Assembly (NCBI GenBank): GCA_002803225.1
Contig: NXFV01001905.1
Location: 1-64,000, forward strand
Origin: Gamarada debralockiae
Taxonomy: Eukaryota > Ascomycota > Leotiomycetes > Helotiales > Hyphodiscaceae
Length of the DNA: 64,000 nt
Direction of reading: 5' to 3'
The translations under genes and the position numbers were made by a program. Below are positions 57,460 to 59,728 of this stretch, piece after piece. How positions within the stretch are numbered: position 1 is the stretch's first letter; the number at the start of each line of letters is the position of its first letter. The notes below the pieces were generated by a model. It was given only the letters and a program-made list of their open reading frames with translations, did no database searches and was not told the origin of the DNA.

Positions 57460-57635
57460 TCATTGGCAAGTCATGGCTTGCGAAGACGACGTTTCTAGCA
57501 ACCTACTTATGATGGCACAGGATTTGATAGCCGGTCTACAGCACACTGCCAGCGTGCTCTCATTGGCAAGTCATGATCTACGAAGATGGCTTTTCAACGA
57601 CCTACTTATGATGATATAGGCTTGGACGATACTCA
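57460..57635 (+). repeat. direct duplication, 100-bp period, over the MazG start
   Basis: The block beginning TCATTGGCAAGTCATG at 57460 recurs at 57560. About 60-70 nt of each copy align; both share CGAAG, then ACCTACTTATGATG, with several transitions between them (GCACAGG versus ATATAGG). The second copy supplies the ATG and first codons of the MazG-type gene; the first copy has ACG where that ATG would be. Confidence 0.75.
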
Positions 57636-57972
57636 TCTCTACTGTGAACTCATGGTTAGCAAGGCGGTCCACGACACCCTCGCGGCATTCGTCGCTGAAC
57701 GCGATTGGGCGCAGTTCCACACTCCAGAGAACCTCGCCAAGAGCGTTGCGATCGAAGCCGGCGAACTACTCGAGTGCTTTCAGTGGGGCGCCGAAGCTGA
57801 CCCGAAGCGCGTACGTGAAGAACTTGCAGACGTACTGACCTACTGTTTGCTTCTCGCTGATCGCATCGGAGCCGATCCTGAGCAGATCGTGCTGGAGAAG
57901 CTCGAAATCACGCGCAAGAAGTATCCCGTTGACAAGGCCCGAGGAAGCAGCAGAAAATATGATGAACTCTAA
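57586..57972 (+). CDS. bacterial-type MazG nucleotide pyrophosphohydrolase
   Basis: A single exon of 128 aa starts at ATG 57586, which sits in an ideal eukaryotic context (A at -3, G at +4). It matches all-alpha NTP pyrophosphatases of the MazG/dCTPase type: the metal motif ExxE (E57, E60 in IEAGELLECFQW) and ExxD (E79, D82 in REELADVLTY), the preceding FHTPENLAKSV and the final ARGSSRKYDEL typical of bacterial MazG-like proteins. Such enzymes hydrolyse (d)NTPs to monophosphates and pyrophosphate, as house-cleaning or nucleotide depletion in defence. G+C is far above the flanks (39 of 60 on line 57661). There is no intron. It is probably of bacterial origin (HGT), with residues 1-24 possibly supplied or altered by the local duplication. 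Its stop overlaps the start of the next ORF. Confidence 0.9.
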   Translation: MAFQRPTYDDIGLDDTHLYCELMVSKAVHDTLAAFVAERDWAQFHTPENLAKSVAIEAGELLECFQWGAEADPKRVREELADVLTYCLLLADRIGADPEQIVLEKLEITRKKYPVDKARGSSRKYDEL

Positions 57973-59728
57973 AATGGCGCGGCTTGAATTCTCCAAAGCT
58001 GCCGTTACAACGTGGAAGTTCCACGACGAGAAACATGGCAACTGGCCTGTCGTGTATATATTGGACGATGGCCGTGACACCGCACAGGCCAATCCGAACA
58101 AACTGAGGGACATCTATGTTGGGGAATCGCTCAACGCCGCGGGCCATCTGCGTCAGCACCTCGAAACACCCGCGAAACAGCACCTCAAGAGTATTCGCGT
58201 CATCATCGATGAAAAGTTCAACAAGTCGGTTTGCCTTGACTTAGAGTCCTGCCTCATCAAAATGTTGGCAGGCGACGGTGCCAATCGGGTGCTCAACCGA
58301 AATAACGGGATCACGGAGTCCAAATACTACCAACGCGAGATGTATCGCGAGGGCTTCCGCAATATCTTCGAACAACTCAAGGCCGATGGCATCTTCACGC
58401 GAAGTATCCCCGAAATCGAAAACAGCGACCTGTTCAAGTTGTCACCCTTCAAAGCGCTGACGGAAGATCAAGCAACTTCGGTAGAGGAAATCGTCAAGGG
58501 GTTCCTCATTGACGTCGAGAGAGACGCCAAAAGCATGATTGTGATCCAGGGCGATCCGGGCACTGGCAAGACGGTCGTGGCCATATATATGATCAAATTG
58601 CTCGTCGACATCAAGACATTCACTTCACTTGAAGATCTGGACAGTGACTCGCGATTCTCTAACTTCTTCACCGAAACCAATCAGAGGCTTCTCCAGGATC
58701 TCCGCATCGGCCTGGTCGTGCCGCAGCAATCGTTGCGAGACTCCATCAAGAAGGTCTTCCGGAAGACGCCTGGGCTTAACCCCTCAATGGTCATGACCCC
58801 CTTCGACGTGGGACAAGTAGATGGAATTTTCGATCTGCTATTGGTTGACGAGACTCATCGGCTCAATCAACGTGCTAACCAACCATCGGGAGTGCTCAAT
58901 GCCAAGTTCGCAACCATCACAAGAGAGCTTTTTGGCAGCGACGATACCAGCAAGACTCAACTTGATTGGATACGGGCGAAGAGCCGACATCAGATCTTCC
59001 TTTTAGACGCAGCACAGAGTGTTCGACCAGCCGATCTGCCCTCGGAGCTGCTATCGGACCTCGTTGCTGACACTCGTGCGTCGGGACGGCATTTTCAGCT
59101 TCGGACTCAGATGCGCGTACAAGCGGGATCGGACTTCGTGTCTTACGTTCGCTGGATTCTCGATCCTCGTCCTCTCTCGGTTCCACAAGTGAGACGAGAT
59201 TTTGGGGAATATGATTTCCGCGCGTTCGACAGCGTTGCACACATGCGAGACGAAATTTTCCGACGCAATGCCGAAGTGGGCCTTTCACGCATGGTCGCTG
59301 GCTACGCATGGGAGTGGAAGACAAAAAGGGACAAGAACGCGTTCGACATCGAAATCGGCCATACGCGGCTCTGCTGGAACAGCACCCCGACCGACTGGAT
59401 TGCTTCTAGCAACGCGCTCGAGGAAGTGGGATCGATTCATACGGTTCAGGGATACGACCTGAACTACGTTGGTGTCATCATTGGTCTTGATCTACGATTC
59501 GACCCTGAGCGAAGGCGTCTTTTCATTGATCGCGACTCGTACTTTGACAAGAAGGGCAAGGAGAACAACCCGGTTCTCGGCAGGACCTACTCGGACGATG
59601 ACCTGCTGCGATTCATCACGCAGATCTATGCCGTGCTCATGACGCGCGGGATCCGGGGAACGTACGTTTATGCGTGCGATCCCGGTTTGAGGGAGTATCT
59701 CAAAGCTTTCATTCCTTCCCATTCTTGA
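57959..59728 (+). CDS. GIY-YIG nuclease fused to DUF2075 helicase
   Basis: A single intronless exon of 589 aa from ATG 57959 (ATG 57962 and ATG 57974 are alternatives; 57974 sits one base after the MazG stop in a strong context). Residues ~30-70 form a GIY-YIG-like nuclease core (VYIL at 32-35, IYVGES at 52-57, R65 as candidate catalytic Arg). A superfamily 1-like helicase/ATPase of the DUF2075 (Schlafen group 3) type follows: Walker A GDPGTGKT (198-205), Walker B LLLVDETHR (DETH 297-300), DAAQSV, LRTQMR and a late motif VQGYDLNYVGVIIGLDL. The joined architecture is a bacterial one, often near defence genes, and I know of no fungal family with it. Presumed role: nucleic-acid sensing and cleavage powered by ATP. 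No disruption is visible. How a second cistron would be translated in a fungus is unclear. Confidence 0.88.
   Translation: MMNSKMARLEFSKAAVTTWKFHDEKHGNWPVVYILDDGRDTAQANPNKLRDIYVGESLNAAGHLRQHLETPAKQHLKSIRVIIDEKFNKSVCLDLESCLIKMLAGDGANRVLNRNNGITESKYYQREMYREGFRNIFEQLKADGIFTRSIPEIENSDLFKLSPFKALTEDQATSVEEIVKGFLIDVERDAKSMIVIQGDPGTGKTVVAIYMIKLLVDIKTFTSLEDLDSDSRFSNFFTETNQRLLQDLRIGLVVPQQSLRDSIKKVFRKTPGLNPSMVMTPFDVGQVDGIFDLLLVDETHRLNQRANQPSGVLNAKFATITRELFGSDDTSKTQLDWIRAKSRHQIFLLDAAQSVRPADLPSELLSDLVADTRASGRHFQLRTQMRVQAGSDFVSYVRWILDPRPLSVPQVRRDFGEYDFRAFDSVAHMRDEIFRRNAEVGLSRMVAGYAWEWKTKRDKNAFDIEIGHTRLCWNSTPTDWIASSNALEEVGSIHTVQGYDLNYVGVIIGLDLRFDPERRRLFIDRDSYFDKKGKENNPVLGRTYSDDDLLRFITQIYAVLMTRGIRGTYVYACDPGLREYLKAFIPSHS

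What the first reader, a model, noticed from the sequence alone, without database searches (positions are those of the whole stretch)
57586..59728. Bacterial-type MazG plus GIY-YIG/DUF2075-helicase gene pair inside a fungal genome
Two intronless, GC-rich ORFs with bacterial protein families sit in otherwise intron-rich, lower-GC fungal DNA. The first has the ExxE/ExxD metal motif of MazG-type NTP pyrophosphohydrolases; the second joins a GIY-YIG nuclease to a DUF2075/Schlafen-group-3-type helicase with intact Walker A and B. Nucleotide hydrolysis coupled to a nuclease-helicase is a logic seen in bacterial antiphage systems; I infer a defence-like module acquired by horizontal transfer. Both frames are fully open, so they are recent or under selection. 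NLR genes lie elsewhere in the window.
Basis: partly seen in the sequence, partly recalled or inferred. Interest (0 to 1): 0.95.

Follow-up and report, generated by a model that had tools for sequence, protein, structure and literature searches.

The report
Bacterial operon kept intact in fungi
A two-gene bacterial operon (a nucleotide-destroying enzyme plus a nuclease-helicase) was acquired by fungi, now occurs in distantly related fungi, and still keeps the bacterial overlap of its two genes, which makes it a natural test of how a eukaryote can use a bacterial operon.

Summary
The pair is real. A MazG-like, dCTP-pyrophosphatase-type gene (core 57652-57972) overlaps a GIY-YIG/Schlafen-group-3 helicase gene (57959-59728) by 14 nt, in a 107-kb contig of a helotialean fungus between fungal genes. 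The source is actinobacterial: Microbacteriaceae carry the same operon with the same 14-nt overlap (helicase up to 69% identical). It is not a recent, isolated capture: named fungi carry copies 76-96% identical, and all fungal and unnamed rows of the tree form one clade among Microbacteriaceae. Class monophyly is rejected for Sordariomycetes and Dothideomycetes, so it also moved between fungi. Fungal copies are under strong purifying selection. In 17 of 19 contig-matched pairs the protein ends fit one overlapping nucleotide string in the same register (control 0.7%), so the operon architecture persists. How the second gene is translated is open: the 304 nt between the start codons lack ATG, which would suit leaky scanning, but on recount 2 of 52 bacterial homologues lack it too. 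No strict-consensus intron fuses the frames. This copy alone (of 188 sequences) lacks the GIY-YIG arginine (R63H), so its nuclease is probably impaired. A defence role is plausible but untested.

The parts
57652..57972 (+). MazG-like (dCTP-pyrophosphatase / RS21-C6 type) gene, core ORF of 106 aa with stop TAA; metal ligands at 57754 (E35), 57763 (E38), 57820 (E57), 57829 (D60)
57586..57651 (+). In-frame 5' extension of the MazG ORF (22 codons from an upstream ATG with a strong context); absent from most relatives, probably leader
57959..59728 (+). GIY-YIG nuclease + SLFN-g3/DUF2075 SF1 helicase gene, 589 aa from the first ATG; Walker A 58550-58573, Walker B 58847-58858
57959..57972 (+). 14-nt overlap of the two reading frames; an ATG stands at the same place, 14 nt from the end of the MazG stop, in 50 of 52 bacterial MazG genes of at least 58% identity
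57655..57958 (+). Stretch free of ATG in all three forward frames between the MazG start and the helicase start (304 nt; 3.8 expected from base composition)
58145..58147 (+). CAT codon: R63H in the GIY-YIG domain, the only non-arginine among 188 sequences with a residue there
58250..58252 (+). TGC codon: Y98C, two residues after the glutamate E96; with R63H the only window changes at columns where 12 near relatives are unanimous
57307..57629 (+). Dispersed repeat directly upstream of MazG (copies at 83% on contig C1111 and 76% on C571, partial ones on C909 and C248); possible source of the fungal promoter/leader
57165..57303 (+). Short dispersed repeat, 37 further matches at 77-91% identity in the host genome (a lower bound)
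60587..62119 (+). Flanking fungal gene, tRNA-splicing endonuclease subunit Sen54; places the host in Leotiomycetes/Helotiales
53688..54695 (+). Flanking fungal gene on the other side, arrestin C-terminal domain

Best explanation
This is an actinobacterial (Microbacteriaceae-type) two-gene operon that entered fungi, most simply once, has been passed on within and between fungal lineages, and is maintained by selection with its bacterial gene overlap intact (shown by sequence). Most likely both proteins come from one fungal mRNA: ribosomes that miss the weak-context MazG start (ctcATGg) scan an ATG-free 304 nt and start at the helicase ATG-ATG pair (inferred; leaky scanning about 40%, lowered from 50% after the recount; reinitiation or a second promoter inside MazG otherwise). 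MazG would hydrolyse dCTP or modified dCTP and the partner would unwind and cut nucleic acid, together guarding the cell against foreign or damaged nucleic acid (inferred, about 40%). In this particular copy the nuclease is probably impaired by R63H.
For: Named fungi at 76-96% identity among the 120 best hits, no named bacterium among them; best bacterium 69%. All 97 fungal + unnamed rows form one clade, support 100, among Microbacteriaceae (33 rows, 100/100). AU test rejects one clade for 8 Sordariomycete rows (p 0.0014) and for 8 Dothideomycete rows (p 9e-5). Window and Cenococcum helicases are 95-97% identical although the host is a Leotiomycete. Overlap register fits in 17 of 19 contig-matched pairs, against 15 of 2204 and 3 of 1700 in controls. 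Columns invariant in 69 bacteria depart from the fungal majority in 47 of 6888 cells (0.7%), bacteria-variable ones in 6068 of 33817 (17.9%). No ATG in the 304 nt; 12 of 6357 overlapping windows of that length in 12 ORFs of the contig have none. Strict fungal intron model: none that joins the frames. MazG matches dCTPase by sequence (2e-20) and fold.
Against: No transcript, ribosome or protein data. The ATG test has one fungal DNA sequence only; synonymous-codon nulls give P(0) of 0.01, 0.07 and 0.21. My first bacterial count wrongly included the helicase start itself; counted alike, 50 of 52 bacterial homologues have 1-7 internal ATGs (mean about 2.9) and two, L027 and L029, have none. An in-frame ATG at 57586 has a strong context and, if transcribed, would weaken leaky scanning. 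Some Fusarium MazG proteins carry internal methionines. Basal unnamed rows such as P0117 could be an unsampled bacterial lineage, which would allow more than one transfer. Leotiomycete monophyly is not rejected (p 0.107). MazG alone gives a poorly resolved tree in which bacteria are not one side of a branch.
Confidence: 0.7

Rival explanations
1. The two genes are expressed separately: MazG from an upstream fungal promoter, the helicase from a promoter that evolved inside the MazG coding sequence. The overlap is kept only because both protein ends are constrained.
For: Several public fungal annotations list the helicase as its own gene, for example in Mycena, Alternaria, Cadophora and Bisporella; the overlap encodes conserved ends of both proteins.
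Against: A start site inside a 321-nt ORF leaves little room for a promoter; it would not by itself explain the lack of ATG over the whole 304 nt.
Confidence: 0.28
2. One mRNA, but the helicase is reached by termination and reinitiation at the MazG stop rather than by leaky scanning.
For: The stop is followed after one base by an in-frame helicase ATG in a strong context (taaaATGg, 57974) and preceded 13 nt upstream by the ATG pair. Yeast can be brought to translate a second cistron by 80S reinitiation (PMC11952965, abstract and introduction read).
Against: The same paper says that yeast does not normally do this; no ATG depletion would be needed.
Confidence: 0.2
3. One fused protein is made through an intron or programmed frameshift, as several public gene models propose.
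For: Eight named models join MazG and helicase parts in one protein (P0012, P0019, P0067, P0079, P0094, P0098, P0108, P0118).
Against: The junctions differ among the models (two, P0012 and P0067, share the MazG-side break point), and some delete most of MazG or the GIY-YIG start. In the window no strict-consensus intron joins the frames, and the 4 loose ones cut out catalytic parts. Frameshifting was not tested.
Confidence: 0.07
4. Passive relic: a transferred fragment with no use, not yet decayed, in this host at least.
For: R63H and Y98C hit the nuclease centre of this copy.
Against: Both frames are open; helicase and MazG motifs are intact here; strong conservation across 113 full-length fungal-clade rows, the window included.
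Confidence: 0.12
5. Bacterial contamination or an assembly chimera.
For: No reads could be inspected.
Against: Fungal genes on both sides within one 107-kb contig, a repeat of the host genome immediately upstream, GC3 between bacteria and host, and close copies annotated in other fungal genomes.
Confidence: 0.02

Closest known systems
Horizontal operon transfers into Wickerhamiella/Starmerella yeasts (enterobactin and thiamine-salvage operons; Kominek 2019, Goncalves 2019; seen only as described and cited in passages of PMC11952965 and PMC13376923, originals not held)
   Same: Adjacent bacterial genes moved together into a fungal chromosome and were kept.
   Different: PMC11952965 (introduction read) says that in none of its cited examples was the original polycistronic structure retained; here the 14-nt overlap is retained. 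Here the genes are nucleic-acid enzymes, not a biosynthetic pathway, and the pair moved on between fungal classes.
Bicistronic genes of green algae translated by leaky scanning (PMC11291117; abstract, section 8 and passages read)
   Same: Weak start context of ORF1 and few ATGs before ORF2.
   Different: Those were shown by mutational tests in algae; here the pair is a transferred bacterial operon with overlapping frames, and nothing has been measured.
DCTPP1 / RS21-C6 dCTP pyrophosphatases
   Same: Sequence (2e-20), fold (Foldseek rank 1) and metal motif.
   Different: Bacterial-type 106-aa protein linked to a nuclease-helicase; substrate unknown.
Schlafen group 3 / DUF2075 helicases (SLFN11, SLFN14 helicase domain)
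   Different: N-terminal GIY-YIG instead of the Schlafen core nuclease (recalled); UvrD scores higher and other SF1 helicases as high.

Membership tests
Horizontal operon transfer from bacteria to fungi | Phylogeny nests the fungal genes inside a bacterial clade | tested here: met
   Helicase: one clade, support 100. MazG: smallest midpoint-rooted group with all 13 named fungal rows holds no named bacterium, but the tree is poorly resolved.
Horizontal operon transfer from bacteria to fungi | Two or more neighbouring genes moved together and lie between host genes | tested here: met
   MazG directly upstream in 57 of 72 bacterial loci
Horizontal operon transfer from bacteria to fungi | Genes are expressed in the new host | not testable with these tools
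   no RNA data
Leaky-scanning bicistronic gene | Depletion of ATG before ORF2 | tested here: inconclusive
   0 in 304 nt, 3.8 expected from composition, but codon nulls give 0.01-0.21, 2 of 52 bacterial homologues also have none, and only one fungal DNA sequence was available
Leaky-scanning bicistronic gene | Weak start context of ORF1 | tested here: inconclusive
   57652 is weak (C at -3) but an in-frame ATG at 57586 is strong; transcript start unknown
Leaky-scanning bicistronic gene | One mRNA yields both proteins | not testable with these tools
   needs RNA and ribosome data
MazG-like / dCTP pyrophosphatase family | ExxE and ExxD metal motif and all-alpha fold | tested here: met
MazG-like / dCTP pyrophosphatase family | Hydrolysis of dCTP | not testable with these tools
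   assay needed
GIY-YIG nuclease | Two tyrosines, glycine, glutamate and asparagine of the active site | tested here: met
   Y33, Y53, G55, E96, N113 present; that these are the active-site set is recalled
GIY-YIG nuclease | Active-site arginine | tested here: not met
   H63 in the window; R in 118 of 118 fungal-clade and 69 of 69 bacterial rows with a residue there. The role of this arginine is recalled.
SLFN-g3 / DUF2075 helicase (PF09848) | Profile match above the curated cut-off with Walker A and B | tested here: met
   215 bits against a cut-off of 24; motifs
Antiphage defence system | Full-length match to a known system model | tested here: inconclusive
   Only weak partial matches, best PDC-S41 3e-7
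Antiphage defence system | Protection against phage or other invaders | not testable with these tools
   experiment needed

The most novel reading that the evidence does not exclude
A bacterial nucleic-acid-defence operon has become a transferable immunity module of fungi and is the first natural bacterial operon found to persist in a eukaryote as an overlapping dicistron, made usable because the first gene is free of ATG codons, so that scanning ribosomes reach the second.
Probability: 0.3. Interest if true: 0.92.

Novelty: new variant of a known kind. Interest (0 to 1): 0.78.

Why it matters
How a eukaryote can use a bacterial operon is an open question; PMC11952965 (introduction read) states that in all of its cited cases the polycistronic structure was lost. 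Here an overlapping bacterial operon appears to have survived speciation and transfer among fungi, which gives many natural replicates for testing leaky scanning, reinitiation or internal promoters. If the pair protects fungi against viruses or mobile elements, it would also be a prokaryotic immune module in use in fungi. Public gene models currently hide it by gluing the two ORFs together in different ways.

Tried and rejected
Contamination was rejected: fungal flanks, host repeat upstream, close copies in other fungi. A splice-made fusion was rejected as unlikely. A recent capture by this fungus from bacteria was rejected by the tree. No PADLOC system name was assigned. In the tblastn searches the plasmid collection gave 40 records, all under 60% identity, and the phage collection 4 records, best 51%; in viral contigs 5 stretches matched a pattern and none was confirmed. 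A PDB sequence search with the helicase gave nothing at E 0.01, and the fold comparison covered residues 114-589 only, so the GIY-YIG domain rests on motif and predicted secondary structure. DNA of other fungi could not be obtained, so dN/dS and the ATG test across fungi were not done.

My first ATG count for bacteria (1-8 in 52 of 52) was unfair, because it included the helicase start inside the MazG ORF. Counted over the same stretch as the window, one of 52 has none; in three more rows (L005, L025, L027) the aligned start was one codon early and their own start was counted, so L027 also has none: 50 of 52 have 1-7.

The bacterial-neighbour scan took 100 of 189 chosen neighbour ORFs and has no control set, so defence-island enrichment is not claimed. 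In the first small tree Westerdykella joined one Cenococcum row through a gene-model artefact at the N-terminus; I cut all rows to start at the IYVGES motif and rebuilt with 43 rows. In the large tree I dropped 24 of 190 rows (8 truncated, 16 near-identical). Two of 19 contig-matched pairs failed the overlap test; both have helicase models that start late. Papers: no report of this pair in fungi in the listings (those of 13 and 84 are broad and were read as listings only); supplements were not searched. The 829-genome HGT survey (PMC11708051) has no occurrence of 'operon' or 'MazG' in its main text (term search only).
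Full report

WHERE IT LIES. The window is the start of contig C984, 107,036 nt, of a 54.3-Mb assembly in which the helicase search found one place. Fungal genes flank it: arrestin-like 53688-54695 and Sen54 60587-62119. The named Sen54 relatives nearest by score are Leotiomycetes such as Lachnellula and Mollisia (64%); Hyphodiscus hymeniophilus (Helotiales) is 80% identical over 55% of the query; no Cenococcum is among the named rows of the 120 listed (class of Lachnellula and Mollisia recalled). 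Upstream lie two dispersed repeats, 57165-57303 (37 further matches at 77-91%) and 57307-57629 (83% on C1111, 76% on C571). They may have supplied the fungal promoter or leader; that is inference.

WHERE IT COMES FROM. In 72 bacterial loci found with the helicase, the best are Microbacteriaceae with a few Micrococcaceae, 52-69% identical; more distant ones are Butyrivibrio, Saccharibacteria, Dojkabacteria and others. MazG lies directly upstream of the helicase in 57 of 72 loci, downstream in 9, apart in 2, on the other strand in 2, absent in 2. In 50 of 52 bacterial MazG genes of at least 58% identity an ATG stands 14 nt from the end of the MazG stop, exactly the window's geometry. Named fungi carry the helicase at 76-96%: Cenococcum, Bisporella, Cadophora, Fusarium, Ilyonectria, Neonectria, Stachybotrys, Monosporascus, Westerdykella, Clohesyomyces, Alternaria, the lichen fungi Trypethelium and Bathelium, and Mycena. 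In a tree of 166 rows (24 of 190 dropped), the 97 fungal and unnamed rows form one clade, support 100, among Microbacteriaceae. A careful tree of 43 rows agrees (100/100), though the node that joins the fungi to their nearest bacterial group is weak (94/54). There the AU test rejects a single clade for the 8 Sordariomycete rows (p 0.0014) and the 8 Dothideomycete rows (p 9e-5), but not for the 3 Leotiomycete rows (p 0.107). The window, a Leotiomycete, groups with Cenococcum, a Dothideomycete (99/91), at 97% identity over the columns used. Classes of Cenococcum, Westerdykella, Monosporascus, Bathelium, Mycena and Hyphodiscus were looked up; the others are recalled. One entry into fungi followed by transfers between fungi is the simplest reading. 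Basal unnamed rows such as P0117 could still be an unsampled bacterium. MazG alone gives a poorly resolved tree: the smallest midpoint-rooted group that holds all 13 named fungal rows has 89 rows and no named bacterium, but bacteria are not one side of a branch.

THE OVERLAP IS KEPT IN FUNGI. Nineteen helicase-MazG pairs in the listings share the same longest-contig length (picked by eye; equal length is a proxy for the same contig). For 17 of the 19, the end of MazG and the start of the helicase can be encoded by one nucleotide string in the same overlapping register, with overlaps of 11, 14, 26 or 29 nt; the two misses have helicase models that start late. As controls, unrelated Sen54 N-termini fit at any overlap in 15 of 2204 combinations, and shuffled MazG ends in 3 of 1700. 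Eight named fungal gene models glue the two ORFs into one protein, with junctions that differ from model to model except that two share the MazG-side break point, as expected of gene finders that cannot represent an overlap. In the window no intron with a strict fungal consensus joins the two frames; four loose candidates would remove catalytic parts.

HOW THE SECOND ORF MAY BE READ. Between the MazG start and the helicase start the window has no ATG in any frame (304 nt; 3.8 expected from base composition). Among overlapping 304-nt windows of 12 ORFs of the contig, 12 of 6357 have none, all in one ankyrin gene. Synonymous-codon nulls are less extreme: P(0) 0.01 (Sen54 codons), 0.07 (the pair's own codon usage), 0.21 (permuting MazG's own codons). 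Against bacteria the contrast is modest: my first count included the helicase start by mistake; over the same stretch 50 of 52 homologues have 1-7 ATGs (mean about 2.9) and two, L027 and L029, have none. The MazG start has C at -3, the helicase start A at -3. A weak ORF1 context and few ATGs before ORF2 are the signatures reported for leaky-scanning bicistronic genes in green algae (PMC11291117; abstract, section 8 and passages read). Against: an upstream in-frame ATG at 57586 has a strong context, some Fusarium MazG proteins have internal methionines, and only one fungal DNA sequence was available. PMC11952965 (abstract, introduction and passages read) states that transferred operons in its cited examples lost the polycistronic structure, and that yeast can be brought to translate a second cistron by reinitiation, a rival mechanism here. 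I put leaky scanning at about 40%.

SELECTION AND THE STATE OF THIS COPY. At 61 columns invariant in all 69 bacterial rows, 113 full-length fungal-clade rows (the window included) depart from the fungal majority in 47 of 6888 cells (0.7%), against 6068 of 33817 (17.9%) at bacteria-variable columns; the nuclease part alone departs in 2 of 1577. The protein is therefore under constraint in fungi, nuclease included. At columns where 12 near relatives are unanimous the window differs at two sites only, R63H and Y98C, both in the GIY-YIG domain. R63 is arginine in 118 of 118 fungal-clade and 69 of 69 bacterial rows that have a residue there. That this arginine is catalytic is recalled knowledge of GIY-YIG enzymes. 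So this host's nuclease is probably weak or dead, while helicase and MazG look intact; a sequence error is not excluded.

FUNCTION. The biochemistry (dCTP-type hydrolysis; SF1 helicase; nuclease in the other copies) follows from the families. A role against foreign nucleic acid is inference. PADLOC has no full model for either protein. Among 100 scanned bacterial neighbours (of 189 chosen), GmrSD_C appears in 7, mad3 in 4, and type IV restriction, Druantia-type methylase, PD-Lambda-1 and IetA models in 2 each, but without a control.

VERDICT. Observation confirmed; horizontal origin confirmed and widened; defence untested. Interest 0.78; new variant of a known kind.

Noticed in passing
window 17800-20694 (+), 23139-27654 (-), 2384-5200 (-): NLR-like genes: NPHP3_N/NACHT-type ATPase plus winged-helix plus ankyrin repeats in two places, and a third large ankyrin ORF.
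   Followed up: partly
window 59709-60011 (-): ORF with a PigL_N domain (2e-7), the N-terminal type of fungal NLR-like proteins (recalled), overlapping the 3' end of the helicase ORF by 20 nt on the other strand; looks like a fragment.
   Followed up: partly
window 57165-57303: Short dispersed repeat with 37 further matches at 77-91% in the host genome; class not determined.
   Followed up: partly
P0054 and P0081 (Fusarium ambrosium, Neonectria ditissima): Gene models with about 200 extra N-terminal residues in front of the helicase; true fusion or annotation artefact not resolved.
   Followed up: no
L088 (MT836409.1), 6968-8689: An unverified 'Bacteriophage sp.' scaffold from human faeces carries a 51% identical helicase; it may be a bacterial fragment.
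   Followed up: partly
L049, L050, L051, L054, L055, L056, L057, L070: Butyrivibrio-type loci have the same two genes in reverse order (helicase first, MazG directly after), so the partnership may be older than the actinobacterial arrangement.
   Followed up: no
P0012, P0019, P0067, P0079, P0094, P0098, P0108, P0118: Public fungal gene models join the two overlapping ORFs by predicted introns at inconsistent places, which hides the dicistronic arrangement.
   Followed up: yes
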